This document shows, one piece after another, positions 1-34,676 of a DNA stretch of 34,676 nt; the stretch's first letter is position 1, and every line of letters begins with the position of its first letter. Made by a program: the position numbers and the translations under genes. This DNA is from Saccoglossus kowalevskii (taxonomy: Eukaryota > Hemichordata > Enteropneusta > Harrimaniidae). Location: positions 1-34,676 of the forward strand of contig NW_003148629.1 in assembly GCF_000003605.2 (NCBI RefSeq), written 5' to 3'. The notes beneath the pieces were generated by a model that saw only the letters and a list, made by a program, of their open reading frames with translations, had not been told where the DNA came from and made no database searches.

Positions 1-62
1 CACAATCTTCGGTTGACTTCTCATGTAGGAGAGCGATGCCTTATCCATTAGGCCACAGAAGA
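1..62 (-). tRNA. tRNA-Arg(CCU), 3' end outside window
   Basis: GAG intron. C30-C40 mismatch in the anticodon stem, A26, and acceptor 5' strand TCTTCTG (G1 and C3 changed). Resembles the gene at 12117. Likely weak or dead. Confidence 0.6.
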
Positions 63-193
63 AGTTGAAGTATAAATACATTAACACAATTTTGACAAAT
101 TGATCTTGTGTGTTTTATTGAAAACAAGTGTCAAGTAGAATGCATGTTTTATTTTCATGACGGAGTAGAATTGAATAAATCTGAAAGGGACTT

Positions 194-198
194 AAAAA
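194..198 (-). terminator. Pol III T-run terminator (representative)
   Basis: Five T on the minus strand follow the discriminator at once, as expected for Pol III termination. Copies have T5, T6 or T7. The gene at 7616 (like 2005) has T4 starting two bases later. Genes at 3120, 4478, 5830, 19761 and 32956 have only TTT (ACGTTTAAAA context). Confidence 0.9.
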
Positions 199-209
199 TA
201 CCCCTGGTG

Positions 210-220
210 GGACTCGAACC
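210..220 (-). promoter_or_regulatory. Pol III B box (representative)
   Basis: Minus-strand GGTTCGAGTCC in the T arm of the gene at 199-282 fits the GGTTCGANTCC consensus bound by TFIIIC. Most copies keep it. It is altered in genes at 8072 and 25999 (C56U) and at 24659, 25104, 25779 and 29379 (GTCC changed to GTAT). Confidence 0.9.
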
Positions 221-234
221 CACAATCTTCGGTT

Positions 235-245
235 GACTTCACATG
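235..245 (-). other. 11-base tRNA intron (representative)
   Basis: The 18-base sequence between the anticodon-stem strands becomes a normal 7-base loop (CTCCTA plus A) when CATGTGAAGTC is removed after position 37, the standard nuclear tRNA splice site. C32 can pair with the intron G three bases before the 3' splice site, the expected anticodon-intron pair. Other alleles: CATGAGAAGTC, CATTTGAAGTC, CATGTGAATTC, CATGCGAAGTC, TATGTGAAGTC and forms ending in GTT. Confidence 0.9.
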
Positions 246-264
246 TAGGAGACCGACGCCTTAT

Positions 265-275
265 CCATTAGGCCA
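265..275 (-). promoter_or_regulatory. Pol III A box (representative)
   Basis: Minus-strand TGGCCTAATGG spans positions 8-18 of the gene at 199-282 and fits TRGYNNANNGG. Variants in other genes include C11A (1549, 7164, 12799) and G10A (2225, 2445, 5830, 11441, 14590, 19761, 23978). Confidence 0.88.
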
Positions 276-410
276 CAGAGGCAGTTGACAAGTAAATACC
301 TTAACACAATTTTGACAAATTGATCTTGTGTGTTTTATTAAAAACAAGTGTCAAGTGTCAAGTGAATTGCATGATTTGTTTTCATGACGGAGTAGAATTG
401 AATATATCTG

Positions 411-645
411 CGTGTGGCTGATACGCGATTCTGGAAACAGCCGAATGACAGTTATACTGGATTTTGATGCGAAATTACCATTTAAATGGCCACCATTCTG
501 TCATTTTGAGTGGATTATGGAAACAAACTTGTGCATTTGTGCAAACTGTGTGTGTGAAGGGTTAATGTATTCAGTACATGAATGTACGTGATACAGGTGC
601 GGATAGACGTTGAATCAGCAAATCAGGGTCTTTCGACCATTCCTG
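411..645. repeat. 235-236 bp long-unit insert (representative of 39)
   Basis: The insert separates ATATCTG from AAGGRRTTTTAAAAA, which are contiguous in short units (ATATCTGAAAGGGACTTAAAAA); CTG occurs at both borders. It contains the perfect palindrome CCATTTAAATGG and a GGCTG/CAGCC inverted repeat near its left end, but no A/B box pair. Frames differ between copies, so it does not look coding. Other copies: 1079-1313, 1754-1989, 2870-3104, 3545-3780, 4228-4462, 4903-5138, 5580-5814, 6694-6928, 7369-7602, 7821-8056, 8498-8733, 10296-10531, 11190-11425, 11866-12101, 12549-12783, 13445-13679, 14340-14574, 14802-15036, 15696-15931, 16379-16613, 17055-17290, 19510-19745, 20406-20641, 21711-21946, 22394-22628, 23728-23962, 24410-24643, 25529-25763, 26425-26660, 27102-27337, 27778-28014 (diverged), 28234-28469, 29129-29363, 30687-30922, 31370-31604, 32706-32940, 33599-33834 and 34492-34676 (cut by window end). 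Confidence 0.9.
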
Positions 646-660
646 AAGGAATTTTAAAAA

Positions 661-744
661 TACCCCTGGTGGGACTCGAACCCACAATCTTCGGTTGACT
701 TCTCATGTATGAGACCGACGCCTTATCCATTAGACCACAGAGGC
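661..744 (-). tRNA. tRNA-Arg body with CAU anticodon
   Basis: The loop reads CTCATA, so the anticodon is CAT (Met codon AUG) and U33 is kept. C11U makes a U11-G24 wobble. GAG intron, discriminator A, T5, long flank. Body is otherwise that of the Arg family. Confidence 0.75.
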
Positions 745-873
745 AGTTGAGTATAAATGCCGTACACAATTTTGACAAATTTATCTGTGTGTTTTATGAA
801 ACAAGTGTCAAGTAGAATGCATGTTTATTTCATGACGGAGTAGAATTGAATAAATCTGAAAGGGACTTAAAAA

Positions 874-957
874 TACCCCTGGTGGGACTCGAACCCACAA
901 TCTTCGGTTGACTTCACATGTAGTTGACCGACGCTTTATCCATTAGGCCACAGAGGC
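874..957 (-). tRNA. tRNA-Arg-like, anticodon ACU, U33 lost
   Basis: Loop CAACTA: U33 and C34 both became A, giving ACT. G23A breaks a D-stem pair. GTG intron. Near-universal U33 is missing, so decoding is doubtful. Confidence 0.65.
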
Positions 958-1328
958 AGTTGACAAGTAAATACCTTAACACAATTTTGACAAATTGATC
1001 TTGTGTGTTTTATTAAAAACAAGTGTCAAGTAAATTGCATGATTTGTTTTCATGACGGAGTGGAATTGAATATATCTGCGTGTGGCTGATACGCGATTCT
1101 GGAAACAGCCGAATGACAGTTATACTGGATTTTGATGCGAAATTACCATTTAAATGGCCACCATTCTGTCATTTTGAGTGGATTATGGAAACAAACTTGT
1201 GCATTTGTGCAAACTGTGTCTGTGAAGGGTTAATGTATTCAGTACAAGAATGTACGAGATACAGGTGCGGATAGACGTTGAATCAGCAAATCAGGGTCTT
1301 TCGGCCATTCCTAAAGGAGTTTTAAAAA

Positions 1329-1412
1329 CACCCCTGGTGGGACTCGAACCCACAATCTTCGGTTGACTTCACATGTAGGAGACCGACGCCTTATCCATTA
1401 GGCCACAGAAGC
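1329..1412 (-). tRNA. tRNA-Arg(CCU)
   Basis: Discriminator G, GTG intron, C3U giving a U3-G70 wobble, long flank. Confidence 0.9.
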
Positions 1413-1548
1413 AGTTGAAGTGTAAATGCTGTAACACAATTTTGACAAATTTATCTTGTGTGTTTCATTGAAAACAAGTGTTAAGTAAAATGCATGTTTT
1501 ATTTTCATGACGGAGTAGAATTGAATATATCTGAAAGGGACTTAAAAA

Positions 1549-1632
1549 CACCCCTGGTGGGACTCGAACCCACAATCTTCGGTTGACTTCACATGTAGGA
1601 GACCGACGCCTTATCCATTAGTCCACAGAGGC
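1549..1632 (-). tRNA. tRNA-Arg(CCU)
   Basis: Discriminator G, GTG intron; C11A breaks a D-stem pair and alters the A box. Confidence 0.8.
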
Positions 1633-2004
1633 AGTTGACATTTAAATACCTTAACACAATTTTCACAAATTGATCTTGTGTGTTTTATTGAAAACAAGTG
1701 TCAAGTAGAATGCATGTTTTATTTTCATGACGGAGTAGAATTGAATATATCTGCGTGTGGCTGATACGCGATTCTGGAAACAGCCGAATGACAGTTATAC
1801 TGGATTTTGATGCGAAATTACCATTTAAATGGCCACCATTCTGTCATTTTGAGTGGATTATGGAAAACAAATTTGTGCATTTGTGCAAACTGTGTCTGTG
1901 AAGGTTTAATGTATTCAGTACAAGAATGTACGAGATACAGGTGCGGATAGACGTTGAATCAGCAAATCAGGGTATTTCGGCCATTCCTGAAGGGGTTTTA
2001 AAAG

Positions 2005-2088
2005 TACCCCTGGTGGGACTCGAACCCACAATCTTCGGTTGACTTCACATGTAGGAGACCAACGCCTTATCCAATAGGCCACAGAGGC
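2005..2088 (-). tRNA. tRNA-Arg(CCU)
   Basis: GTG intron, C28U wobble, one D-loop change in the A box. Terminator T4 begins two bases past the discriminator. Long flank. Confidence 0.85.
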
Positions 2089-2224
2089 AGTTGAAGTATA
2101 AATGCCGTAACACAATTTTGACAAATTTATCTTGTGTGTTTTATTGAAAACAAGTGTCAAGTAGAATGCATGTTTTATTTTCATGACGGAGTAGAATTGA
2201 ATAAATCTGAAAGGGACTTAAAAA

Positions 2225-2308
2225 TACCCCTGGTGGGACTCGAACCCACAATCTTCGGTTGACTTCACATGTAGGAGACCAACGCCTTATCCATTAGGTC
2301 ACAGAGGC
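2225..2308 (-). tRNA. tRNA-Arg(CCU)
   Basis: GTG intron, C28U wobble; G10A mismatches C25. Discriminator A, T5. Confidence 0.8.
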
Positions 2309-2444
2309 AGTTGAAGCATAAATGCCCTAACACAATTTTGACAAATTGATCTTGTGTGTTTTATTGAAAACAAGTGTCAAGTAGAATGCATGTTTTATTT
2401 TCATGACGGAGTAGAATTGAATATATCTGAAAGGGACTTAAAAA

Positions 2445-2528
2445 CACCCGTGGTGGGACTCGAACCCACAATCTTCGATTGACTTCTCATGTAGGAGACC
2501 GACGCCTTATCCATTAGGTCACAGAGGC
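2445..2528 (-). tRNA. tRNA-Arg(CCU)
   Basis: Discriminator G, GAG intron without long flank. Acceptor C5-C68 mismatch, C40U wobble, G10A. Confidence 0.72.
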
Positions 2529-2664
2529 AGTTGAAGCATAAATGCCCTAACACAATTTTGACAAATTGATCTTGTGTGTTTTATTGAAAACAAGTGTCAA
2601 GTAGAATGCATGTTTTATTTTCATGACGGAGTAGAATTGAATAAATCTGAAAGGGACTTAAAAA

Positions 2665-2748
2665 TACCCCTGGTGGGACTCGAACCCACAATCTTCGGTT
2701 GACTTCACATGTAGGAGACCAACGCCTTATCCATTAGGCCACAGAGGC
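2665..2748 (-). tRNA. tRNA-Arg(CCU)
   Basis: Consensus except a C28U wobble; GTG intron, discriminator A. Confidence 0.9.
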
Positions 2749-3119
2749 AGTTGACAAGTAAATACCTTAACAAAATTTTGACAAATTGATCTTGTGTGTT
2801 TTATTAAAAACAAGTGTCAAGTAAATTGCATGATTTGTTTACATCACGGAGTAGAATTGAATATATCTGCGTGTGGCTGATACGCGATTCTGGAAACAGC
2901 CGAATGACAGTTATACTGGATTTTGATGCGAAATTACCATTTAAATGGCCACCATTCTGTCATTTTGAGTGGATTATGGAAACAAACTTGTGCATTTGTG
3001 CAAACTGTGTCTGTTAAGGGTTAATCTATTTAGTACAAGCATGTCCGAGACACAGATGCGGATGGACGTTGAATCAGCAAGTCAGGGTCTTTCGGTTATT
3101 CCTGAAGGGGTTTTAAACG

Positions 3120-3203
3120 TACCCCTGGTGGGACTCGAACCCACAATCTTCGGTTGACTTCTCATGTTGGAGACCGACGCCTTATCCATTAGGCCACAGA
3201 AGC
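3120..3203 (-). tRNA. tRNA-Arg body with CCA anticodon
   Basis: Loop CTCCAA, so U36A changes CCT to CCA (Trp codon UGG). Stem, U33 and GAG intron are intact; C3U wobble in the acceptor. Only TTT follows, so termination is probably weak. Long flank. Confidence 0.78.
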
Positions 3204-3339
3204 AGTTGAAGTATAAATGCAGTAACACAATTTTGACAAATTTATCTTGTGTGCTTCATTGAAAACAAGTGTTAAGTAAAATGCATGTTTTATTTTCATG
3301 ACGGAGTAGAATTGAATATATCTGAAAGGGACTTAAAAA

Positions 3340-3423
3340 CACCCCTGGTGGGACTCGAACCCACAATCTTCGGTTGACTTCACATGTAGGAGACCGACGC
3401 CTTATCCATTAGGCCACAGAGGC
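3340..3423 (-). tRNA. tRNA-Arg(CCU), consensus, discriminator G
   Basis: Fully paired as in the consensus; GTG intron, T5. Confidence 0.94.
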
Positions 3424-3795
3424 AGTTGACATTTAAATACCTTAACACAATTTTGACAAATTGATCTTGTGTGTTTTATTAAAAACAAGTGTCAAATAAA
3501 TTGCATGTTTTGTTTTCATGACGGAGTAGAATTGAATATATCTGCGTGTGGCTGATACGCGATTCTGGAAACAGCCGAATGACAGTTATACTGGATTTTG
3601 ATGCGAAATTACCATTTAAATGGCCACCATTCTGTCATTTTGAGTGGATTATGGAAAACAAATTTGTGCATTTGTGCAAACTGTGTATGTGAAGGGTTAA
3701 TGTATTCAGTACAAGAATGCACGAGATGCAGGTGCGGGTGGACGTTGAATCAGCAAGTCAGGGTATTTCGGCCATTCCTGAAGGGGTTTTAAAAA

Positions 3796-3880
3796 TACAC
3801 CTGGTGGGACTCGAACCCACAATCTTCGTGTTGACTTCTCATGTAGGAGAGCAACGCCTTATCCATTAGGCCACAGAGGC
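3796..3880 (-). tRNA. tRNA-Arg(CCU), damaged, 85 bases
   Basis: One extra base in the anticodon-stem 3' strand (CGTG), C30 opposing it, C28U, and C3-U70 acceptor mismatch. GAG intron, long flank. Probably a pseudogene. Confidence 0.55.
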
Positions 3881-4016
3881 AGTTGAAGTATAAATACATT
3901 AACACAATTTTGACAAATTGATCTTGTGTGTTTTATTGAAAACGAGTGTCAAGTAGAATGCATGTTTTATTTTCATGACGGAGTAGAATTGAATAAATCT
4001 GAAAGGGACTTAAAAA

Positions 4017-4102
4017 TACCCCTGGTGGGACTCGAACCCACAATCTTTCGGTTGACTTCACATGTAGGAGACCCAACGCTTATCCATTAGGCCCACAGAG
4101 GC
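4017..4102 (-). tRNA. tRNA-Arg(CCU) with indels, 86 bases
   Basis: Extra bases in three homopolymers and one lost in the D region. The neighbouring spacer has the same kind of error, so consensus error may explain it. GTG intron. Confidence 0.5.
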
Positions 4103-4477
4103 AGTTGACAAGTAAAATTCCTTAACAAAATTTTGACAAATTGATCTTGTGTGTTTTTATTAAAAAACAAGTGTCAAAGTAAATTGCATGATTTGTTTAC
4201 ATCACGGAGTAGAATTGAATATATCTGCGTGTGGCTGATACGCGATTCTGGAAACAGCCGAATGACAGTTATACTGGATTTTGATGCGAAATTACCATTT
4301 AAATGGCCACCATTCTGTCATTTTGAGTGGATTATGGAAACAAACTTGTGCATTTGTGCAAACTGTGTCTGTTAAGGGTTAATCTATTTAGTACAAGCAT
4401 GTCCGAGACACAGATGCGGATGGACGTTGAATCAGCAAGTCAGGGTCTTTCAGTTATTCCTGAAGGGGTTTTAAACG

Positions 4478-4561
4478 TACCCCTGGTGGGACTCGAACCG
4501 ACAATCTTCAGTTGACTTCTCATGTTGGAGACCGACGCCTTATCCATTAGGCCACAGAAGC
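4478..4561 (-). tRNA. tRNA-Arg body with CCA anticodon, second copy
   Basis: As at 3120, plus a C51-C63 T-stem mismatch and a C41U wobble. Weak TTT terminator, long flank. Confidence 0.68.
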
Positions 4562-4697
4562 AGTTGAAGTATAAATGCAGTAACACAATTTTGACAAATT
4601 TATCTTGTGTGATTCATTGAAAACAAGTGTTAAGTAAAATGCATGTTTTATTTTCATGACGGAGTAGAATTGAATATATCTGAAAGGGACTTAAAAA

Positions 4698-4781
4698 CAC
4701 CCCTGGTGGGACTCGAACCCACAATCTTCGGTTGACTTCACATGTAGGAGACCGACGCCTTATCCATTAGGCCACAGAGGC
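4698..4781 (-). tRNA. tRNA-Arg(CCU), consensus, discriminator G
   Basis: GTG intron, T5, all stems paired. Confidence 0.94.
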
Positions 4782-5153
4782 AGTTGACATTTAAATACCT
4801 TAACACAATTTTGACTAATTGATCTTGTGTGTTTTATTAAAAACAAGTGTCAAATAAATTGCATGTTTTGTTTTCATGACGGAGTAGAATTGAATATATC
4901 TGCGTGTGGCTGATACGCGATTCTGGAAACAGCCGAATGACAGTTATACTGGATTTTGATGCGAAATTACCATTTAAATGGCCACCATTCTGTCATTTTG
5001 AGTGGATTATGGAAAACAAATTTGTGCATTTGTGCAAACTGTGTATGTGAAGGGTTAATGTATTCAGTACAAGAATGCACGAGATGCAGGTGCGGATGGA
5101 CGTTGAATCAGCAAGTCAGGGTATTTCGGCCATTCCTGAAGGGGTTTTAAAAA

Positions 5154-7247: not shown

Positions 7248-7615
7248 AGTTGACATTTAAATACCTTAACACAATTTTCACAAATTGATCTTGTGTGTTT
7301 TATTGAAAACAAGTGTCAAGTAGAATGCATGTTTTATTTTCATGACGGAGTAGAATTGAATATATCTGCGTGTGGCTGATACGCGATTCTGGAAACAGCC
7401 GAATGACAGTTATACTGGATTTTGATGCGAAATTACCATTTAAATGGCCACCATTCTGTCATTTTGAGTGGATTATGGAAAACAAATTTGTGCATTTGTG
7501 CAAACTGTGTCTGTGAAGGTTTAATGTATTCAGTACAAGAATGTACGAGATACAGTGCGGATAGACGTTGAATCAGCAAATCAGGTATTTCGGCCATTCC
7601 TGAAGGGTTTAAAAG

Positions 7616-7699
7616 TACCCCTGGTGGGACTCGAACCCACAATCTTCGGTTGACTTCACATGTAGGAGTCCGACGCCTTATCCATTAGGCCACAGAAGC
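7616..7699 (-). tRNA. tRNA-Arg(CCU)
   Basis: U31A opens the last anticodon-stem pair (A31-A39), C3U wobble, GTG intron, T4 two bases downstream, long flank. Confidence 0.8.
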
Positions 7700-8071
7700 A
7701 GTTAACATGTAAATACCTTAACACAATTTTGACAAATTGATCTTGTGTGTTTTATTAAAATCAAGTGTCAAGTAAATTGCATGTTTTGTTTTCATGACGG
7801 AGTAGAATTGAATATATCTGCGTGTGGTTGATACGCGATTCTGGAAACAGCCGAATGACAGTTATACTGGATTTTGATGCGAAATTACCATTTAAATGGC
7901 CACCATTCTGTCATTTTGAGTGGATTATGGAAAACAAATTTGTGCATTTGTGCAAACTGTGTCTGTGAAGGGTTAATGTATTCAGTACAAGCATGTCCGA
8001 GATACAGGTGCGGATGGACGTTGAACCAACAAGTCAGAATCTTTCGGCCATTCCTGAAGGAGATTTAAAAA

Positions 8072-8155
8072 TACCCCTGGTGGGACTCAAACCTACAATC
8101 TTCGGTTGACTTCACATGTAGGAGACCGACGCCTTATCCATTAGGCCACGGAGGC
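8072..8155 (-). tRNA. tRNA-Arg(CCU), T arm and B box altered
   Basis: G51A mismatch and C56U in the T arm change the B box to GGTTTGAGTCC; C6-A67 acceptor mismatch. GTG intron, long flank. Probably poorly transcribed. Confidence 0.65.
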
Positions 8156-8292
8156 AGTTGAAGTATAAATGCCGTAACACAATTTTGACAAATTTATCTT
8201 GTGTGTTTTATTGAAAACAAGTGTTAAGTAAAATGCATGTTTTATTTTCATGATGGAGTAGAATTGAATATATCTGAAAGGGACTTAAAAAA

Positions 8293-8376
8293 TACCCCTG
8301 GTGGGACTCGAACCCACAATCTTCGGTTGACTTCACATGTAGGAGACCGACGCCTTATCCATTAGGCCACAGAGGC
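8293..8376 (-). tRNA. tRNA-Arg(CCU), consensus
   Basis: GTG intron, discriminator A, T6. Confidence 0.94.
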
Positions 8377-8748
8377 AGTTGACGAGTAAATACCTTAACA
8401 CAATTTTGACAAATTTATCTTGTGTGTTTTATTAAAATCAAGTGTCAAGTAAATTGCATGTTTTGTTTTCATGACGGAGTAGAATTGACTATATCTGCGT
8501 GTGGCTGATACGCGATTCTGGAAACAGCCGAATGACAGTTATACTGGATTTTGATGCGAAATTACCATTTAAATGGCTACCATCCTGTCATTTTTAGTGG
8601 ATTATGGAAAACAAACTTGTGCATTTGTGCAAACTGTGTCTGGGAAGGGTTAATGTATTCAGTACAAGCATGCTCGAGATACAGGTGCGGATGGACGTTG
8701 AATCAGCAAGTCAGGGTCTTTCGGCCATTCCTGTAGGGGTTTTAAAAA

Positions 8749-8832
8749 TACCCCTGGTGGGACTCGAACCCACAATCTTCGGTTGACTTCTCATGTAGGA
8801 TACAGACGCCTTATCCATTCGGCCACAGAGGC
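8749..8832 (-). tRNA. tRNA-Arg(CCU)
   Basis: C32A removes the intron pairing base; G29U and U13G are mismatches. GAG intron, long flank. The 493 bp insertion lies in its 5' spacer. Confidence 0.7.
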
Positions 8833-8918
8833 AGTTGACATGTAATTACCTTAACACAATTTTGACAAATTGATCTTGTGTGTTTTATTTAAAACAAGTG
8901 TCAAGTAGAATGCATGTT

Positions 8919-9411
8919 ATCTATACTTAACTCCAATTATTCGTACAAATTAAACAACAAGCATGAAATGCGGTATGCGGTGGTTGCATTACCCAGGAAC
9001 CACACGCGTTTATTACAAGTATCCCCCCTTACATATGTAAATATTCACGGAATAATCGATGATAAATCCCCATCGCGAATACATTGACCGCCCAGGAAAA
9101 CCAGATATAAAAAACCCGTTAAGGGGAAAAACATCTGGAAACCTGTACCCGACACAATGTCAGATGTATCTAGGGGTGGATGTCGGGAGTCATCCATATT
9201 AAAATTGGACATGTATTAAATAAGAAAAAATACATCGTGAGTTGTTTGCAACCGAGACTGAATACAATAGAACACTCTTCTTACTATATACAAATGAGCA
9301 CCTGGTTATTTAGCCAATAACCAGTCAGAACAGGTGCAATGGCACCTGAATAATTTACATACGAATAGATACCAATCATCTGCTAATCTACGAAACGCAG
9401 ATAATTTATCA
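8919..9411. repeat. 493 bp unrelated insertion in a spacer, copy 1
   Basis: The normal spacer GCATGTT/TTATTTTCATG is split exactly here by 493 bp with no similarity to the array. Removing it restores the spacer with no target-site duplication, and I see no terminal inverted repeats. It is rich in short inverted repeats: GTGGTT/AACCAC 8980-9003, palindrome TTACATATGTAA 9029-9040, CCAGAT/ATCTGG 9101-9138, CCCGACA/TGTCGGG 9148-9187, ATGTATT/AATACAT 9211-9235, GGTTATT/AATAACC 9304-9322, GCACCTG/CAGGTGC 9298-9337 with a further GCACCTG at 9342-9348, and ATCTGC/GCAGAT 9378-9402. No convincing ORF. It could be a non-autonomous element or captured filler DNA; the family is not recognised. Confidence 0.8.
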
Positions 9412-9461
9412 TTATTTTCATGGCGGAGTAGAATTGAATATATCTGAAGGCGATTTAAAAA

Positions 9462-9545
9462 TACCCCTGGTGGAACTCGAACCCACAATCTTTGGTTGAC
9501 TTCAAATGTAGGAGACCGACGCCTTATCCATTAGGCCACAGAGGC
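9462..9545 (-). tRNA. tRNA-Arg(CCU)
   Basis: CATTTGAAGTC intron, C28-A42 mismatch, G53-U61 wobble. Its 3' flank leads into the 493 bp insertion. Confidence 0.78.
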
Positions 9546-9681
9546 AGTTGACGAGTAAATACCTTAACACAATTTTGACAAATTTATCTTGTGTGTTTCA
9601 TTTAAAACAAGTGTCAAGTAGAATGCATGTTTTATTTTCATGACGGAGTAGAATTGAATATATCTGAAGGCGATTTAAAAA

Positions 9682-9733
9682 TACCCCTGGTGGAACTCGA
9701 ACCCACAATCCTTATCCATTAGGCCACAGAGGC
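9682..9733 (-). pseudogene. tRNA-Arg pseudogene lacking anticodon arm
   Basis: 52 bases: acceptor, D and T arms and both Pol III boxes remain, but a 32-base deletion removed anticodon stem, loop and intron, joining GGATAAGG to ATTGTGGG. T5 terminator kept, so a short Pol III transcript is still possible. Confidence 0.9.
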
Positions 9734-9870
9734 AGTTGACGAGTAAATACCTGAACACAATTTTGACAAATTTATCTTGTGTGTTTTATTGATAACAAGT
9801 GTTAAGTAAAATGCATGTTTTATTTTCATGACGGAGTAGAATTGAATATATCTGAAAGGGACTTAAAAAA

Positions 9871-9954
9871 TACCCCTGGTGGGACTCGAACCCACAATCT
9901 TCGGTTGACTTCACATGTAGGAGACCGACGCCTTATCCATTAGGCCACAGAGGC
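9871..9954 (-). tRNA. tRNA-Arg(CCU), consensus
   Basis: GTG intron, discriminator A, T6. Confidence 0.94.
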
Positions 9955-10090
9955 AGTTGACGAGTAAATACCTTAACACAAATTTGACAAATTTATCTTG
10001 TGTGTTTCATTGAAAACAAGTGTTAAGTAAAATGCATGTTTTATTTTCATGACGGAGTAGAATTGAATATATCTGAAAGGGACTTAAAAA

Positions 10091-10174
10091 TACCCCTGGT
10101 GGGACTCGAACCCACAATCTTCGGTTGACTTCACATGTAGGAGTCCGACGCCTTATCCATTAGGCCACAGAAGC
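10091..10174 (-). tRNA. tRNA-Arg(CCU)
   Basis: U31A mismatch and C3U wobble; GTG intron, T5. Confidence 0.82.
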
Positions 10175-10546
10175 AGTTAACATGTAAATACCTTAACACA
10201 ATTTTGACAAATTGATCTTGTGTGTTTTATTAAAATCAAGTGTCAAGTAAATTGCATGTTTTGTTTTCATGACGGAGTAGAATTGAATATATCTGCGTGT
10301 GGTTGATACGCGATTCTGGAAACAGCCGAATGACAGTTATACTGGATTTTGATGCGAAATTACCATTTAAATGGCCACCATTCTGTCATTTTGAGTGGAT
10401 TATGGAAAACAAATTTGTGCATTTGTGCAAACTGTGTCTGTGAAGGGTTAATGTATTCAGTACAAGCATGTCCGAGATACAGGTGCGGATGGACGTTGAA
10501 TCAGCAAATCAGGGTCTTTCGGCCATTCCAGAAGGAGTTTTAAAAA

Positions 10547-16030: not shown

Positions 16031-16166
16031 AGTTGAAGTATAAATACATTAACACAATTTTGACAAATTGATCTTGTGTGTTTTATTGAAAACAAGTGTC
16101 AAGTAGAATGCATGTTTTATTTTCATGACGGAGTAGAATTGAATAAATCTGAAAGGGACTTAAAAA

Positions 16167-16250
16167 TACCACTGGTGGGACTCGAACCCACAATCTTCGG
16201 TTGACTTCACATGTAGGAGACCGACGCCTTATCCATTAGGCCACAGAGGC
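16167..16250 (-). tRNA. tRNA-Arg(CCU)
   Basis: G69U leaves U4-U69 in the acceptor; GTG intron, T5. Confidence 0.82.
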
Positions 16251-16628
16251 AGTTGACATTTAAATACCTTAACACAATTTTGACAAATTGATCTTGTGTG
16301 TTTTATTAAAAACAAGTGTCAAGTGTCAAGTAAATTGCATGATTTGTTTTCATGACCGAGTAGAATTGAATATATTTGCGTGTGGCTGATACGCGATTCT
16401 GGAAACAGCCGAATGACAGTTATACTGGATTTTGATGCGAAATTACCATTTAAATGGCCACCATTCTGTCATTTTGAGTGGATTATGGAAACAAACTTGT
16501 GCATTTGTGCAAACTGTGTCTGTGAAGGGTTAATGTATTCAGTACAAGAATGTACGAGATACAGGTGCGGATAGACGTTGAATCAGCAAATCAGGGTCTT
16601 TCGGCCATTCCTGAAGGAGTTTTAAAAA

Positions 16629-16712
16629 TACCCCTGGTGGGACTCGAACCCACAATCTTCGGTTGACTTCTCATGTAGGAGACCGACGCCTTATCCATTA
16701 GGCCACAGAGGC
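16629..16712 (-). tRNA. tRNA-Arg(CCU), consensus
   Basis: GAG intron, T5, long flank with the TGTCAAG duplication. Confidence 0.93.
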
Positions 16713-16849
16713 AGTTGAAGTATAAATGCCGTAACACAATTTTGACAAATTTATCTTGTGTGTTTTATTGAAAACAAGTGTTAAGTAAAATGCATGTTTT
16801 ATTTTCATGATGGAGTAGAATTGAATATATCTGAAAGGGACTTAAAAAA

Positions 16850-16933
16850 TACCCCTGGTGGGACTCGAACCCACAATCTTCGGTTGACTTCACATGTAGG
16901 AGACCGACGCCTTATCCATTAGGCCACAGAGGC
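16850..16933 (-). tRNA. tRNA-Arg(CCU), consensus
   Basis: GTG intron, T6; duplicate of 8293. Confidence 0.94.
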
Positions 16934-17305
16934 AGTTGACGAGTAAATACCTTAACACAATTTTGACAAATTTATCTTGTGTGTTTTATTAAAATCAAGT
17001 GTCAAGTAAATTGCATGTTTTGTTTTCATGACGGAGTAGAATTGACTATATCTGCGTGTGGCTGATACGCGATTCTGGAAACAGCCGAATGACAGTTATA
17101 CTGGATTTTGATGCGAAATTACCATTTAAATGGCTACCATCCTGTCATTTTTAGTGGATTATGGAAAACAAACTTGTGCATTTGTGCAAACTGTGTCTGG
17201 GAAGGGTTAATGTATTCAGTACAAGCATGCTCGAGATACAGGTGCGGATGGACGTTGAATCAGCAAGTCAGGGTCTTTCGGCCATTCCTGTAGGGGTTTT
17301 AAAAA

Positions 17306-17389
17306 TACCCCTGGTGGGACTCGAACCCACAATCTTCGGTTGACTTCTCATGTAGGAGACAGACGCCTTATCCATTCGGCCACAGAGGC
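17306..17389 (-). tRNA. tRNA-Arg(CCU)
   Basis: Duplicate of 8749 but keeps C32; G29U and U13G mismatches. GAG intron, long flank. Confidence 0.75.
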
Positions 17390-17475
17390 AGTTGACATGT
17401 AATTACCTTAACACAATTTTGACAAATTGATCTTGTGTGTTTTATTTAAAACAAGTGTCAAGTAGAATGCATGTT

Positions 17476-17968
17476 ATCTATACTTAACTCCAATTATTCG
17501 TACAAATTAAACAACAAGCATGAAATGCGGTATGCGGTGGTTGCATTACCCAGGAACCACACGCGTTTATTACAAGTATCCCCCCTTACATATGTAAATA
17601 TTCACGGAATAATCGATGATAAATCCCCATCGCGAATACATTGACCGCCCAGGAAAACCAGATATAAAAAACCCGTTAAGGGGAAAAACATCTGGAAACC
17701 TGTACCCGACACAATGTCAGATGTATCTAGGGGTGGATGTCGGGAGTCATCCATATTAAAATTGGACATGTATTAAATAAGAAAAAATACATCGTGAGTT
17801 GTTTGCAACCGAGACTGAATACAATAGAACACTCTTCTTACTATATACCAATGAGCACCTGGTTATTTAGCCAGTAACCAGTCAGAACAGGTGCAATGGC
17901 ACCTGAATAATTTACATACGAATAGATACCAATCATCTGCTAATCTACGAAACGCAGATAATTTATCA
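17476..17968. repeat. 493 bp unrelated insertion, copy 2
   Basis: Near-identical to 8919-9411 at an offset of 8557 and at the same spacer position, so it arose by block duplication and not by a second insertion. Differences include one base near 17850 and AATAACC changed to AGTAACC, which breaks one pair of the GGTTATT stem. Confidence 0.85.
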
Positions 17969-18018
17969 TTATTTTCATGGCGGAGTAGAATTGAATATAT
18001 CTGAAGGCGATTTAAAAA

Positions 18019-18102
18019 TACCCCTGGTGGAACTCGAACCCACAATCTTTGGTTGACTTCAAATGTAGGAGACCGACGCCTTATCCATTAGGCCACAGAG
18101 GC
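18019..18102 (-). tRNA. tRNA-Arg(CCU)
   Basis: Duplicate of 9462: CATTTG intron, C28-A42 mismatch, G53-U61. Confidence 0.78.
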
Positions 18103-18238
18103 AGTTGACGAGTAAATACCTTAACACAATTTTGACAAATTTATCTTGTGTGTTTCATTTAAAACAAGTGTCAAGTAGAATGCATGTTTTATTTTCATGA
18201 CGGAGTAGAATTGAATATATCTGAAGGCGATTTAAAAA

Positions 18239-18290
18239 TACCCCTGGTGGAACTCGAACCCACAATCCTTATCCATTAGGCCACAGAGGC
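18239..18290 (-). pseudogene. tRNA-Arg pseudogene lacking anticodon arm
   Basis: Same 32-base deletion as at 9682; carried by the 8557-offset block. Confidence 0.9.
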
Positions 18291-18427
18291 AGTTGACGAG
18301 TAAATACCTAAACACAATTTTGACAAATTTATCTTGTGTGTTTTATTGATAACAAGTGTTAAGTAAAATGCATGTTTTATTTTCATGACGGAGTAGAATT
18401 GAATATATCTGAAAGGGACTTAAAAAA

Positions 18428-18511
18428 TACCCCTGGTGGGACTCGAACCCACAATCTTCGGTTGACTTCACATGTAGGAGACCAACGCCTTATCCATTAG
18501 GCCACAGAGGC
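18428..18511 (-). tRNA. tRNA-Arg(CCU)
   Basis: C28U wobble, otherwise consensus; GTG intron, T6. Confidence 0.9.
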
Positions 18512-18647
18512 AGTTGACGAGTAAATACCTTAACACAAATTTGACAAATTTATCTTGTGTGTTTCATTGAAAACAAGTGTTAAGTAATATGCATGTTTTA
18601 TTTTCATGACGGAGTAGAATTGAATATATCTGAAAGGGACTTAAAAA

Positions 18648-18730
18648 TACCCCTGGTGGGACTCGAACCCACAATCTTCGGTTGACTTCACATGTAGGAG
18701 TCCGACGCCTTATCCATTAGCCACAGAAGC
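18648..18730 (-). tRNA. tRNA-Arg(CCU), 83 bases
   Basis: One base lost from the D stem (TTAGCC), U31A, C3U. Lies at the right seam of the duplicated block, so the deletion may be a consensus error. Confidence 0.62.
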
Positions 18731-18864
18731 AGTTAACATGTAAATACCTTAACACAATTTTGACAAATTGATCTTGTGTGTTTATTAAAATCAAGTGTCA
18801 AGTAAATTGCATGATTTGTTTCATGACGGAGTAGAATTGAATAAATCTGAAAGGGACTTAAAAA

Positions 18865-21096: not shown

Positions 21097-21148
21097 TACC
21101 CCTGGTGGAACTCGAACCCACAATCCTTATCCATTAGGCCACAGAGGC
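21097..21148 (-). pseudogene. tRNA-Arg pseudogene lacking anticodon arm
   Basis: Third copy of the 32-base deletion, offset 2858 from 18239. Confidence 0.9.
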
Positions 21149-21285
21149 AGTTGACGAGTAAATACCTAAACACAATTTTGACAAATTTATCTTGTGTGTT
21201 TTATTGATAACAAGTGTTAAGTAAAATGCATGTTTTATTTTCATGACGGAGTAGAATTGAATATATCTGAAAGGGACTTAAAAAA

Positions 21286-29820: not shown

Positions 29821-29904
29821 TACCCCTGGTGGGACTCGAACCCACAATCTTCGGTTGACTTCACATGTAGGAGACCGACGCCTTATCCATTAGGCCTCAG
29901 AGGC
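29821..29904 (-). tRNA. tRNA-Arg(CCU)
   Basis: U8A as at 26220; GTG intron. Confidence 0.78.
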
Positions 29905-30040
29905 AGTTGAAGTATAAATGCCGTAACACAATTTTGACAAATTGATCTTGTGTGTTTCATTGAAAACAAGTGTTAAGTAAAATGCATGTTTTATTTTCAT
30001 GACGGAGTAGAATTGAGTATATCTGAAAGGGACTTAAAAA

Positions 30041-30124
30041 CACCCCTGGTGTGACTCGAACCCACAATCTTCGGTTGAATTCACATGTAGGAGACCGACG
30101 CCTTATCCATTAGGCCACAGAGGC
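30041..30124 (-). tRNA. tRNA-Arg(CCU)
   Basis: Discriminator G; C62A opens a T-stem pair; CATGTGAATTC intron. Confidence 0.78.
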
Positions 30125-30261
30125 AGTTGACAAGTAAATACCTTAACACAATTTTGACAAATTTATCTTGTGTGTTTTATTGATAACAAGTGTTAAGTAA
30201 AATGCATGTTTTATTTTCATGACGGAGTAGAATTGAATATATCTGAAAGGGACTTAAAAAA

Positions 30262-30345
30262 TACCCCTGGTGGGACTCGAACCCACAATCTTCGGTTGAC
30301 TTCACATGTAGGAGACCGACGCCTTATCCATTAGGCCACAGAGGC
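30262..30345 (-). tRNA. tRNA-Arg(CCU), consensus
   Basis: GTG intron, T6. Confidence 0.94.
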
Positions 30346-30481
30346 AGTTGAAGTATAAATGCCGTAACACAATTTTGACAAATTGATCTTGTGTGTTTCA
30401 TTGAAAACAAGTGTTAAGTAAAATGCATGTTTTATTTTCATGACGGAGTAGAATTGAATATATCTGAAAGGGACTTAAAAA

Positions 30482-30565
30482 CACCCCTGGTGGGACTCGA
30501 ACCCACAATCTTCGGTTGAATTCACATGTAGGAGACCGACGCCTTATCCATTAGGCCACAGAGGC
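30482..30565 (-). tRNA. tRNA-Arg(CCU)
   Basis: Discriminator G; CATGTGAATTC intron. Confidence 0.91.
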
Positions 30566-30937
30566 AGTTGACAAGTAAATACCTTAACACAATTTTGACA
30601 AATTGATCTTGTGTGTTTTATTAAAAACAAGTGGCAAGTAAATTGCATGATTTGTTTTCATGACGGAGTAGAATTGAATATATCTGCGTGTGGCTGATAT
30701 GCGATTCTAGAAACAGCCGAATGACAGTTATACTGGATTTTGATGCGAAATTACCATTTAAATGGCCACCATTCTGTCATTTTGAGTGGATTATGGAAAA
30801 CAAATTTGTGCATTTGTGCAAACTGTGTCTGTGAAGGGTTAATGTATTCAGTACAAGCATGTCCGAGATACAGGTGCGGATGGACGTTGAATCAGCAAAT
30901 CAGGGTCTTTCGGCCATTCCTGAAGGAGTTTTAAAAA

Positions 30938-31021
30938 TACACCTGGTGGGACTCGAACCCACAATCTTCTGTTGACTTCTCATGTAGGAGACCGATGCCT
31001 TATCCTTTAGGCCACAGAGGC
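30938..31021 (-). tRNA. tRNA-Arg(CCU), damaged
   Basis: Lesions of the 20657 type plus a D-loop change in the A box (CCTAAAGG); GAG intron, long flank. Confidence 0.63.
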
Positions 31022-31157
31022 AGTTGAAGTGTAAATACATTAACACAATTTTGACAAATTGATCTTGTGTGTTTTATTGAAAACAAGTGTCAAGTAGAAT
31101 GCATGTTTTATTTTCATGACGGAGTAGAATTGAATAAATCTGAAAGGGACTTAAAAA

Positions 31158-31241
31158 TACCACTGGTGGGACTCGAACCCACAATCTTCGGTTGACTTCA
31201 CATGTAGGAGACCGACGCCTTATCCATTAGGCCACAGAGGC
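31158..31241 (-). tRNA. tRNA-Arg(CCU)
   Basis: U4-U69 mismatch; GTG intron. Confidence 0.82.
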
Positions 31242-31619
31242 AGTTGACATTTAAATACCTTAACACAATTTTGACAAATTGATCTTGTGTGTTTTATTAA
31301 AAACAAGTGTCAAGTGTCAAGTAAATTGCATGATTTGTTTTCATGACCGAGTAGAATTGAATATATCTGCGTGTGGCTGATACGCGATTCTGGAAACAGC
31401 CGAATGACAGTTATACTGGATTTTGATGCGAAATTACCATTTAAATGGCCACCATTCTGTCATTTTGAGTGGATTATGGAAACAAACTTGTGCATTTGTG
31501 CAAACTGTGTCTGTGAAGGGTTAATGTATTCAGTACAAGAATGTACGAGATACAGGTGCGGATAGACGTTGAATCAGCAAATCAGGGTCTTTCGGCCATT
31601 CCTGAAGGAGTTTTAAAAA

Positions 31620-31703
31620 TACCCCTGGTGGGACTCGAACCCACAATCTTCGGTTGACTTCTCATGTAGGAGACCGACGCCTTATCCATTAGGCCACAGA
31701 GGC
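31620..31703 (-). tRNA. tRNA-Arg(CCU), consensus
   Basis: GAG intron, T5, long flank. Confidence 0.93.
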
Positions 31704-31839
31704 AGTTGAAGTATAAATGCCGTAACACAATTTTGACAAATTTATCTTGTGTGTTTTATTGAAAACAAGTGTTAAGTAAAATGCATGTTTTATTTTCATG
31801 ATGGAGTAGAATGAATATATCTGAAAGGGACTTAAAAAA

Positions 31840-31923
31840 TACCCCTGGTGGGACTCGAACCCACAATCTTCGGTTGACTTCACATGTAGGAGACCGACGC
31901 CTTATCCATTAGGCCACAGAGGC
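31840..31923 (-). tRNA. tRNA-Arg(CCU), consensus
   Basis: GTG intron, T6. Confidence 0.94.
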
Positions 31924-32059
31924 AGTTGAAGTATAAATGCCGTAACACAATTTTGACAATTTTATCTTGTGTGTTTCATTGAAAACAAGTGTTAAGTAAA
32001 ATGCATGTTTTATTTTCATGACGGAGTAGAATTGAATATATCTGAAAGGGACTTAAAAA

Positions 32060-32143
32060 CACCCCTGGTGGGACTCGAACCCACAATCTTCGGTTGAATT
32101 CACATGTAGGAGACCGACGCCTTATCCATTAGGCCACAGAGGC
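32060..32143 (-). tRNA. tRNA-Arg(CCU)
   Basis: Discriminator G; CATGTGAATTC intron. Confidence 0.91.
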
Positions 32144-32280
32144 AGTTGACGAGTAAATACCTTAACACAATTTTGACAAATTTATCTTGTGTGTTTTATT
32201 GATAACAAGTGTTAAGTAAAATGCATGTTTTATTTTCATGACGGAGTAGAATTGAATATATCTGAAAGGGACTTAAAAAA

Positions 32281-32364
32281 TACCCCTGGTGGGACTCGAA
32301 CCCACAATCTTCGGTTGACTTCACATGTAGGAGACCGACGCCTTATCCATTAGGCCACAGAGGC
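32281..32364 (-). tRNA. tRNA-Arg(CCU), consensus
   Basis: GTG intron, T6. Confidence 0.94.
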
Positions 32365-32500
32365 AGTTGACGAGTAAATACCTTAACACAAATTTGACAA
32401 ATTTATCTTGTGTGTTTCATTGAAAACAAGTGTTAAGTAAAATGCATGTTTTATTTTCATGACGGAGTAGAATTGAATATATCTGAAAGGGACTTAAAAA

Positions 32501-32584
32501 TACCCCTGGTGGGACTCGAACCCACAATCTTCGGTTGACTTCACATGTAGGAGACCGACGCCTTATCCATTAGGCCACAGAGGC
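32501..32584 (-). tRNA. tRNA-Arg(CCU), consensus
   Basis: GTG intron, T5. Confidence 0.94.
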
Positions 32585-32955
32585 AGTTGACGATTAAATA
32601 CCTTAACACAATTTTGACAAATTTATCTTGTGTGTTTTATTGAAAACAAGTGTCAAGTAGAATGCATGTTTTATTTTCATGACGGAGTAGTATTCAATAT
32701 ATCTGCGTGTGGCTGATATGCGATTCTGGAAACAGTCGAATGACAGTTATACTGGATTTTGATGCGAAATTACCATTTAAATGGCCACCATTCTGTCATT
32801 TTGAGTGGATTATGGAAACAAACTTGTGCTTTTGTGCAAACTGTGTCTGTTAATGGTTAATCTATTCAGTACAAGCATGTCCGAGACACAGATGCGGATG
32901 GACGTTGAATCAGCAAGTCAGGGTCTTTCGGTTATTCCTGAAGGGGTTTTAAACG

Positions 32956-33039
32956 TACCGCTGGTGGGACTCGAACCCACAATTTTCGGTTGACTTCTCA
33001 TGTAGGAGACCAACGCCTTATCCATTAGGCCACAGAGGC
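32956..33039 (-). tRNA. tRNA-Arg(CCU)
   Basis: U4-C69 mismatch, C28U, one variable-loop change; GAG intron; only TTT after the gene; long flank. Confidence 0.7.
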
Positions 33040-33175
33040 AGTTGAAGTATAAATGCCGTAACACAATTTTGACAAATTTATCTTGTGTGTTTCATTGAAA
33101 ACAAGAGTTAAGTAAAATGCATGTTTTATTTTCATGACGGAGTAGAATTGAATATATCTGAAAGGGACTTAAAAA

Positions 33176-33258
33176 CACCCCTGGTGGGACTCGAACCCAC
33201 AATCTTCGGTTGACTTCTCATGTAGGAGACCGACGCCTTATCCATTAGGCCACGAAGC
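33176..33258 (-). tRNA. tRNA-Arg(CCU), 83 bases
   Basis: Duplicate of 10767: base lost in the acceptor 5' strand, discriminator G, GAG intron. Confidence 0.7.
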
Positions 33259-33393
33259 AGTTGAAGTATAAATGCCGTAACACAATTTTGACAAATTTAT
33301 CTTGTGTGTTTCATTGAAAGAAGTGTTAAGTAAAATGCATGTTTTATTTTCATGACGGAGTAGAATTGAATATATCTGAAAGGGACTTAAAAA

Positions 33394-33477
33394 CACCCCT
33401 GGTGGGACTCGAACCCACAATCTTCGGTTAACTTCAAATGTAGGAGACCGACGCCTTATCCATTAGGCCACAGAGGC
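33394..33477 (-). tRNA. tRNA-Arg(CCU)
   Basis: Duplicate of 10985: discriminator G, CATTTGAAGTT intron. Confidence 0.88.
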
Positions 33478-33849
33478 AGTTGACATTTAAATACCTTAAC
33501 ACAATTTTGACAAATTGATCTTGTGTGTTTTATTAAAAACAAGTGTCAAGTAAATTGCATGTTTTGTTTTCATGACGGAGTAGAATTGAATATATCTACG
33601 TGTGGCTGATACGCGATTCTGGAAACAGCCGAATGACAGTTATACTGGATTTTGATGCGAAATTACCATTTAAATGGCCACCATTCTGTAATTTTGAGTG
33701 GATTATGGAAAACAAATTTGTGCATTTGTGCAAACTGTGTATGTGAAGGGTTAATGTATTCAGTAAAAGAATGTACGAGATACAGGTGCGGATAGACGTT
33801 GAATCAGCAAATCAGGGTATTTCGGCCATTCCTGAAGGGGTTTTAAAAA

Positions 33850-33932
33850 TACCCCTGGTGGGACTCGAACCCACAATCTTCGGTTGACTTCACATGTAGG
33901 AGACGGACGCCTATCCATTAGGCCATAGAGGC
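33850..33932 (-). tRNA. tRNA-Arg(CCU), 83 bases
   Basis: One D-loop base lost, C29-C41 and A7-C66 mismatches; GTG intron with long flank. Lies at a block seam. Confidence 0.62.
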
Positions 33933-34066
33933 AGTTGACATGTAATTACTTAACACAATTTTGACAAATTGATCTTGTGTGTTTTATTGAAAACAAGTGT
34001 CAAGTAGAATGCATGTTTTATTTTCATGACGGAGTAGAATTGAATATATCGAAGGCGATTTAAAAA

Positions 34067-34150
34067 TACCCCTGGTGGAACTCGAACCCACAATCTTAGG
34101 TTGACTTCACATGTAGGAGACCGACGCCTTATCCATTAGGCCACAGAGGC
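34067..34150 (-). tRNA. tRNA-Arg(CCU)
   Basis: Duplicate of 28704: C28-U42 mismatch, G53-U61. Confidence 0.78.
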
Positions 34151-34286
34151 AGTTGAAGTGTAAATGCCTTAACACAATTTTGACAAATTTATCTTGTGTG
34201 TTTTATTGAAATCAAGTGTCAAGTTAAATGCATGTTTTATTTTCATGACAGAGAAGAATTGAATATATCTGAAGGAGACTTAAAAA

Positions 34287-34370
34287 TACCCCTGGTGGGA
34301 CTCGAACCCACAATCTTCGGTTGACTTCACATGTAGGAGACCGACGCCTTATCCATTAGGCCACAGAGGC
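34287..34370 (-). tRNA. tRNA-Arg(CCU), consensus
   Basis: GTG intron, T5. The sequence beyond leads into a truncated insert. Confidence 0.94.
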
Positions 34371-34676
34371 AGTTGACGATTAAATACCTTAACACAATTT
34401 TGACAAATTTATCTTGTGTGTTTTATTGAAAACAAGTGTCAAGTAGAATGCATGTTTTATTTTCATGACGGAGTAGTATTCAATATATCTGCGTGTGGCT
34501 GATATGCGATTCTGGAAACAGTCGAATGACAGTTATACTGGATTTTGATGCGAAATTACCATTTAAATGGCCACCATTCTGTCATTTTGAGTGGATTATG
34601 GAAACAAACTTGTGCTTTTGTGCAAACTGTGTCTGTTAATGGTTAATCTATTCAGTACAAGCATGTCCGATGATGA

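What the first reader, a model, noticed from the sequence alone, without database searches (positions are those of the whole stretch)
1..34676. More than 100 tandem copies of one intron-bearing tRNA-Arg(CCU) gene, all in one direction
112 loci of a single isotype in 34.7 kb, running off both ends, is far beyond the handful of copies usual for a tRNA reading AGG. About 30 copies are intact by eye and the spacers are homogenized along with the genes. It may serve tRNA supply, Pol III/TFIIIC-based chromatin organization, or be a selfish satellite born from a tRNA gene.
Basis: partly seen in the sequence, partly recalled or inferred. Interest (0 to 1): 0.85.

Follow-up and report, generated by a model that had tools for sequence, protein, structure and literature searches.

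The report
Tandem array of arginine tRNA genes
This stretch of an animal genome is one long row of more than a hundred copies of a single arginine tRNA gene, about a third of them still intact, and it is one of several such single-type tRNA rows in that genome, an arrangement that published work calls unusual.

Summary
The window is a whole contig (C3883) of a 572 Mb animal-like assembly. It carries 112 copies of one tRNA-Arg(CCU) gene with an 11-nt intron, all on the minus strand. Intron-aware ARAGORN genes; Rfam passes 107. A second contig, C476, adds 33 copies and has no unique flank. Under strict rules 38 of 108 untruncated window copies look able to make a tRNA. Units are mostly 220 bp (S) or 456 bp (L); genes before S spacers are healthier. 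S-unit similarity does not fall with distance along the array, so homogenisation seems to go by blocks or conversion.

The array is not alone. Arg-TCG, Cys-GCA, Thr-TGT, Trp-CCA and Lys-CTT also form tandem arrays in this genome; Asp-GTC, as far as one search shows, does not. Such arrays are known from Entamoeba, Hydractinia and, in part, Nematostella. I judge it a new member of a known kind: working tRNA genes in concerted evolution, amplified satellite-like beyond ordinary need. Expression and true copy number were not testable.

The parts
1..34676 (-). Tandem array of 112 tRNA-Arg(CCU) gene copies, whole contig, mostly 220 bp and 456 bp units
   Evidence: nhmmer 112 hits all minus; Rfam 107 over cut-off; contig identity; unit lengths
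199..282 (-). Representative intact copy (84 bp gene, 73 nt mature tRNA), identical to the consensus
235..245 (-). 11-nt intron CATGTGAAGTC of that copy, after base 37; third base from its 3' end is G, able to pair with C32 (the pairing rule is recalled)
265..275 (-). Box A (TGGCCTAATGG; box limits recalled) of that copy; identical in 88 of 108 window copies
210..220 (-). Box B (GGTTCGAGTCC; box limits recalled) of that copy; identical in 95 of 108 window copies
194..198 (-). T5 run directly after the gene, Pol III terminator-like; a run of at least 4 T lies there in 135 of 143 units of both contigs
1754..1990 (-). Extra spacer segment (about 237 bp) that makes the L (456 bp) unit, lying between two CAG triplets; of 60 candidates in the genome 40 were scored, all 40 on C3883 or C476
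8919..9410 (.). 492-bp insertion inside an S spacer (713 bp unit); the same insertion is at 17476-17967 (99.6%) and twice in C476 (98.0% each)
   Evidence: no Rfam match
9682..9734 (-). Truncated gene copy with a 32-nt internal deletion; same deletion at 18239-18291 and 21097-21149

Best explanation
It is a real chromosomal array of tRNA-Arg(CCU) genes, amplified in tandem from one intron-bearing gene and kept alike by block-wise exchange and gene conversion. Shown: copy number, orientation, intact promoter boxes and terminators in most units, an intact cloverleaf in about a third of copies, a common pool of variants without decay of S-unit similarity with distance, and a shared deletion and a shared insertion that recur at several places. 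Inferred: the sound copies are transcribed by RNA polymerase III from their internal boxes A and B, end at the T5 run, are spliced by the tRNA splicing enzyme and charged as ordinary tRNA-Arg reading AGG; copy number drifts like a satellite far above ordinary need; weak selection acts on the total number of sound copies and not on each copy, so decayed copies (above all those before the long spacer) accumulate beside good ones.
For: 112 copies in one direction; 105 ARAGORN genes; 38 of 108 sound under the strict rule; consensus mature RNA folds as a cloverleaf; box A canonical in 88 and box B in 95 of 108; at least four T in 135 of 143 units; mean identity of S units 0.948 at neighbour distance 1 and 0.949 at distance 40, with 45 identical pairs of 3828, several of them between the two contigs; a 2.7 kb block at 98.3% identity between 7600-10295 and 16149-18849; one 492-bp insertion at four places on two contigs; A/T sites of the S gene less variable than those of its spacer, 0.19 against 0.50 distinct variants per site, permutation p 0.012; other isotypes arrayed likewise.
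Against: No expression data. Changes in the stems do not favour pairing: 10 of 36 distinct stem variants in S units keep the pair, where 26% is expected, and 8 of 28 in L units, where 31% is expected, so selection on single copies is not visible in the stems. G/C sites of the gene are not less variable than the spacer: 0.88 against 0.57 (p 0.115) in S and 0.73 against 0.49 (p 0.046) in L; A/T sites of the L gene neither, 0.41 against 0.26 (p 0.21). G/C sites of box B in S units vary as much per copy as the rest of the exon, 0.024 against 0.024. 70 of 108 copies fail the strict rule. L-unit similarity is lower at the longest distance, 0.933 at rank 30 against 0.952 at rank 1. A dispersed, sound tRNA-Arg(CCU) gene elsewhere could do all the work; that search did not complete.
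Confidence: 0.6

Rival explanations
1. Stage- or tissue-specific bulk supply: arrays of chosen isotypes are silent in most cells and switched on where a great deal of protein of special composition is made, for instance oocyte, early embryo or a secretory gland.
For: Not every isotype is arrayed: six arrayed ones were found, while Asp-GTC has five good dispersed copies and no array found. Precedents in print: oocyte-specific tandem tRNA genes of Xenopus activated at zygotic genome activation (commentary PMC11500080, part 1 of 2 of the text read) and the Arabidopsis Ser/Tyr tRNA cluster, silent in most tissues and reactivated in the root cap (PMC12308677, passages).
Against: No expression data; about two thirds of copies have a defect; no known RNA or regulatory RNA element in the spacers (Rfam finds only tRNA). 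Protein-binding sites were not searched.
Confidence: 0.2
2. Selfish or structural satellite born from a tRNA gene; the copies make no useful tRNA and the boxes survive by homogenisation alone.
For: No excess of pair-preserving stem changes; 70 of 108 copies defective; the Arg-TCG and Thr arrays hold regular relic-like copies between good ones; copy number far above that found for Asp.
Against: The commonest mature sequence is intact and perfectly folded; the D-loop, anticodon loop, T-loop and 5' side of the T stem are among the least variable parts in S units; T runs kept; A/T sites of the gene less variable than the spacer in S units.
Confidence: 0.13
3. The array works mainly on chromatin, as a TFIIIC/Pol III boundary or clustering element; tRNA output is incidental.
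For: Box A and box B are kept in more copies (88 and 95 of 108) than full gene integrity (38 of 108), though a short box is easier to keep than a whole gene. The human 1q23.3 tRNA tandem repeat is implicated as a boundary (PMC4041453, passages).
Against: Both boxes overlap universally conserved tRNA positions, so their retention does not separate the two roles; no flanking genes were reachable, because both contigs are array from end to end.
Confidence: 0.05
4. Assembly artefact: copy number inflated by the assembler.
For: Both array contigs are short and end inside the array; no reads were available.
Against: Copies differ by about 5%. Among 2483 self-matches the longest is 4.0 kb at 94.3%, and the most alike of those of 1 kb or more is 2.7 kb at 98.3%. 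Five other isotypes show the same design on other contigs.
Confidence: 0.02

Closest known systems
Hydractinia (hydrozoan) tRNA tandem arrays, PMC11067881 (passages read)
   [quoted passage not shown] here no array was found for one tested isotype, Asp-GTC, and snRNAs were not tested. Two unit lengths and decayed copies beside good ones are described here; the passages I saw do not say whether Hydractinia shows this.
Entamoeba tRNA gene arrays, PMC2652664 (passages read)
   Same: Long tandem tRNA arrays of unclear function, some with one tRNA gene per unit.
   Different: Entamoeba units hold 1-5 tRNA genes, E. histolytica has short tandem repeats between genes, most copies of a unit are uniform and the paper saw no clear evidence of pseudogene copies; here copies differ by about 5% and most carry a defect under the strict rule.
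Large tDNA clusters of Nematostella and teleost fishes, PMC2888827 (section 6 and passages read)
   Same: Clusters of fifty and more tRNA genes; most adjacent pairs are parallel.
   Different: Pairs in Nematostella and zebrafish are mostly mixed in isotype; this array is pure. The paper does name species with mostly homogeneous pairs (Tetrahymena, Monosiga, drosophilids).
Xenopus oocyte-specific tandem tRNA genes (commentary PMC11500080, part 1 of 2 read)
   Same: Tandem tRNA genes in an animal.
   Different: Xenopus units hold several different tRNA genes (recalled), and their stage-specific use is measured; nothing is measured here.
Human 1q23.3 tRNA tandem repeat, PMC4041453 (passages read)
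   Same: Tandem repeat with tRNA genes in an animal, variable copy number.
   Different: 7.3 kb GC-rich unit with five tRNA genes of mixed isotype and orientation, 9-43 units.
Arabidopsis Ser/Tyr and Cys tRNA clusters, PMC12308677 (passages) and PMC10701932 (search listing and start of abstract)
   Same: Tandemly duplicated tRNA genes; the Cys cluster has one gene per 0.4 kb unit.
   Different: Four genes in the Cys cluster; mixed isotypes in the Ser/Tyr cluster.

Membership tests
Nuclear tRNA-Arg(CCU) gene | Cloverleaf with all stems paired, anticodon CCT | tested here: met
   45 of 108 untruncated copies meet it fully; the mature consensus folds to it; 63 of 108 do not meet it
Nuclear tRNA-Arg(CCU) gene | Intron directly after base 37 with a base able to pair with base 32 | tested here: met
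   ARAGORN places an 11-nt intron in 78 of the 98 rows seen, as Arg(CCT); G at the third base from the 3' end in 101 of 108. The pairing rule is recalled
Nuclear tRNA-Arg(CCU) gene | Pol III boxes A and B and a T-run terminator | tested here: met
   88 and 95 of 108 with the commonest boxes; at least four T in 135 of 143 units
Nuclear tRNA-Arg(CCU) gene | Transcribed, spliced, charged and used on the ribosome | not testable with these tools
   no RNA data
Isotype-pure tandem tRNA array as in Hydractinia or Entamoeba | Many copies head to tail, one orientation, spacers alike | tested here: met
Isotype-pure tandem tRNA array as in Hydractinia or Entamoeba | Most or all isotypes arrayed in the genome | tested here: inconclusive
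   Six isotypes arrayed; no array for Asp-GTC, 5 good and 4 weak of 9 candidates; the initiator Met query did not complete and the other isotypes were not tested
Selfish satellite | No constraint on the embedded gene | tested here: inconclusive
   No pairing bias in stems; A/T sites of S genes less variable than spacer (p 0.012), G/C sites not (p 0.115), L genes not

The most novel reading that the evidence does not exclude
In this animal a chosen set of tRNA isotypes (Arg-CCU, Arg-UCG, Cys, Thr-UGU, Trp, Lys-CUU so far) has been amplified into tandem arrays of tens to over a hundred genes while others such as Asp stay at a handful of dispersed genes, and the arrays form a switchable supply for a special protein programme (oocyte, embryo or gland). 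Within some arrays a good gene alternates with a decaying one, so the array may be held at a set number of working genes.
Probability: 0.15. Interest if true: 0.75.

Novelty: new member of a known kind. Interest (0 to 1): 0.45.

Why it matters
The Hydractinia authors call tandem array organisation of tRNAs unusual outside Entamoeba, with one example in mammals (PMC11067881, 2024, passages). If this genome is a bilaterian's, as its mitochondrial contig suggests, large arrays of a single isotype are more widespread than those cases imply. A genome in which some isotypes are arrayed and at least one seems not to be offers a natural test of whether tRNA gene number follows demand, drift or chromatin role.

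Tried and rejected
Rejected: (1) SINE or dispersed repeat: the 131 matches of the unit (66 candidates, 40 scored) all lie on C3883 and C476. (2) The long spacer as a mobile element scattered in the genome: all 40 scored of 60 candidates lie on the two array contigs. (3) Other RNA genes in the spacers: Rfam gives only tRNA at gathering level over the window and nothing at E up to 1 in 8834-9461. (4) Prokaryote or phage origin: no match of the 221-bp unit in the phage collection, no exact match of a 23-base pattern in viral contigs or of a 31-base pattern in GTDB contigs; the assembly is 572 Mb with an animal-type mitochondrial contig. (5) Simple neighbour-to-neighbour unequal crossing-over as the only homogeniser: S-unit similarity does not fall with distance. 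(6) DNA-methylation decay as a sign of germline silencing: CpG transitions per copy are S gene 0.014 against 0.012 at other G/C sites, L gene 0.057 against 0.023, L spacer 0.016 against 0.030, S spacer 0.080 against 0.026 on only two CpG bases; mixed, so no conclusion.

Led nowhere: naming the species. The mitochondrial contig reads TGA as Trp, has AAA at conserved Lys and ATA at conserved Ile sites, one AGA at a site that I recall as usually Ser, COX1 on the strand opposite to ND1 and COX2, and several tRNA genes. From recalled code tables I lean to a hemichordate, weakly. Searches for a dispersed tRNA-Arg(CCU) gene, for initiator Met, for 5S RNA and for 18S RNA did not complete. A first script with fuzzy matching timed out; one script failed for a file name and one for a variable name; each was redone another way.
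Full report
What is there. The window is contig C3883, complete, of an assembly of 572,110,611 bases in 4830 contigs. nhmmer with the gene's own consensus finds 112 copies, all on the minus strand. Rfam's tRNA model scores 107 matches above its cut-off. ARAGORN allowing introns reports 105 genes; of the 98 rows that I saw 90 are Arg(CCT), 78 of them with an 11-nt intron. The gene is 84 bp. Without the intron it is a 73-nt tRNA whose minimum-energy fold is a perfect cloverleaf. A T5 run follows the gene; a run of at least four T lies there in 135 of 143 units from both contigs.

How many copies are sound. Of 112, one is cut by the contig end and three share a 32-nt deletion, leaving 108. 46 have all 21 stem pairs and the CCT anticodon, 45 of these without a gap. 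If the intron must also keep the G that can pair with base 32 (a splicing rule that I recall) and four T must follow, 38 remain. 22 of 108 have one and the same mature sequence and 10 more differ from it only at base 73. The anticodon is changed in 6 of 108, five by substitution and one by a deletion. So 'over 100 genes' is right as a count of loci; about a third look able to make a normal tRNA.

Two main kinds of unit. Over both contigs there are 143 measurable units: 88 of about 220 bp (S), 48 of about 456 bp (L), 4 of about 713 bp and 3 of 188 bp. The L form has a 237-bp segment between two CAG triplets; in the genome this segment was seen only on the two array contigs (40 of 60 candidates scored). 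The 713-bp form is an S spacer with a 492-bp insertion, present at two places in the window (99.6% alike) and two in C476 (98.0%). Genes before an S spacer are sounder than genes before an L spacer: 45 of 88 against 13 of 48 with all pairs and the CCT anticodon (Fisher p 0.007), and 1.34 against 2.58 exon differences (rank test p 1e-6); of the four genes of the 713-bp units none is sound. Copies are related by descent, so these p values are too small.

How the array is kept alike. Mean identity is 0.949 among S units and 0.952 among L units of the window. For S it does not fall with distance: 0.948 at rank distance 1 and 0.949 at 40. For L it is 0.952 at 1, 0.950 at 20, 0.947 at 25 and 0.933 at 30, where few pairs remain. 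Identical S units lie kilobases apart and some occur on both contigs. The 32-nt deletion recurs at three places and the 492-bp insertion at four, and a 2.7 kb block around two of the insertions repeats at 98.3%. This points to exchange or copying of multi-unit blocks, with gene conversion, and not to neighbour-by-neighbour spread alone.

Constraint. In S units nucleotide diversity is 0.031 and 0.035 in the two exon halves, 0.061 in the intron and 0.064 in the spacer; in L units it is 0.080 and 0.045 in the exons, 0.038 in the intron and 0.050 in the spacer. In S units the D-loop, T-loop, 5' side of the T stem, variable loop and anticodon loop are among the least variable parts. Against selection on single copies: stem changes keep pairing no more often than the spacer's mutation spectrum predicts (10 of 36 against 26% in S; 8 of 28 against 31% in L). 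Box B as a whole is not spared at its G/C sites in S (0.024 per copy, as in the rest of the exon). G/C sites of the gene are if anything more variable than the spacer (S p 0.115, L p 0.046), while A/T sites are less variable in S (p 0.012) and not in L (p 0.21). The 20 bases 5' of the gene are the most variable stretch in the sliding-window print (0.167 in S, 0.13-0.15 in L). That could be the extra mutation known for transcribed tRNA genes (Thornlow et al. 2018, recalled; the paper was not held), but a few old variants at middle frequency would look the same.

The rest of the genome. The 10.7 kb contig C476 is array from end to end, 33 copies. An Rfam tRNA search of the genome scored only its best 63 of 25,204 candidates: 29 lie on C237, 22 on C926 and 12 on seven other contigs. 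Fetched stretches show tandem arrays of Arg-TCG (C237, C1937, C3006), Cys-GCA (C926, C682, C4368), Thr-TGT (C4103) and Trp-CCA (C4826), with single odd calls among them. One Arg-TCG gene on C3484 stands alone in the stretch fetched. The 51 kb contig C1937 is array at both ends and in the middle stretch that I fetched. In the Arg-TCG and Thr arrays weaker matches to the gene, relic-like copies, lie regularly between the good ones. That Rfam search favours high-scoring repeated tRNAs, so three further isotypes were picked beforehand, of which two queries were answered. Lys-CTT is arrayed: of 124 candidates 40 were scored, 26 on C4166 and 12 on C2779, each on one strand, and one each on two other contigs; of two C4166 loci examined one shows four Lys genes in a row and the other one Lys gene and one called Asn, and the one C1146 locus a lone Lys gene. 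For Asp-GTC no array was found: 9 candidates, all scored, five full-length matches at 92-93% identity (three on C2786, the nearest two 5 kb apart on opposite strands) and four weak ones; the four Asp loci examined hold one tRNA gene each. The initiator Met query did not complete. The queries were human-type sequences from memory, so a much diverged array could be missed.

What it most likely does. The simplest account is a working but over-amplified tRNA gene family. Each sound copy has its own promoter and terminator, the pool is homogenised, and number drifts. Asp suggests that a handful of genes can serve an isotype here. A switchable supply is the most interesting rival, with precedents in Xenopus (commentary PMC11500080, part 1 of 2 read) and Arabidopsis (PMC12308677, passages). 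A pure satellite and a chromatin role remain possible. None of these can be settled without RNA or ChIP data.

Known relatives. [quoted passage not shown] Entamoeba histolytica has 25 array types (PMC2652664, passages). Nematostella and teleost fishes have very large clusters, in Nematostella and zebrafish mostly of mixed isotype (PMC2888827, section 6).

Host. COX1, ND1, COX2 and nearby tRNA genes on contig C4830 mark an animal with a bilaterian-type mitochondrial genome; a hemichordate is my weak guess from recalled code tables.

Noticed in passing
G000 contigs C237, C1937, C3006 (loci L012-L035, L037, L042, L043, L047, L048): Arrays of tRNA-Arg(TCG) in about 565 bp dimers: one good gene and one weaker, relic-like copy per dimer (spacing measured on C1937 and C3006); a lone Arg-TCG gene stands on C3484 (L038, L050).
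   Followed up: partly
G000 contigs C926, C682, C4368 (L036, L039, L040, L041, L044): Arrays of tRNA-Cys(GCA) with a unit of about 237 bp; 10,000 of 10,012 bases of contig C682 hold 40 copies by nhmmer.
   Followed up: partly
G000 contigs C4103 (L011, L049), C4826 (L045), C4166 (L055, L058) and C2779 (coordinates only): Arrays of tRNA-Thr(TGT), tRNA-Trp(CCA) and tRNA-Lys(CTT); tRNA-Asp(GTC) in contrast is dispersed (L059-L062).
   Followed up: partly
window 8919-9410 and 17476-17967: 492 bp insertion of unknown kind in an S spacer, also twice in C476; no Rfam match.
   Followed up: partly
L046 (G000:C4830, mitochondrial): COX1 lies on the strand opposite to ND1 and COX2; TGA reads Trp, ATA looks like Ile and AAA like Lys, a combination that I recall as uncommon among bilaterians.
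   Followed up: partly
20 bp 5' of the gene in the units, e.g. window 283-302: The bases just upstream of the gene are the most variable part of the unit (diversity 0.167 in S, 0.133 in L).
   Followed up: partly
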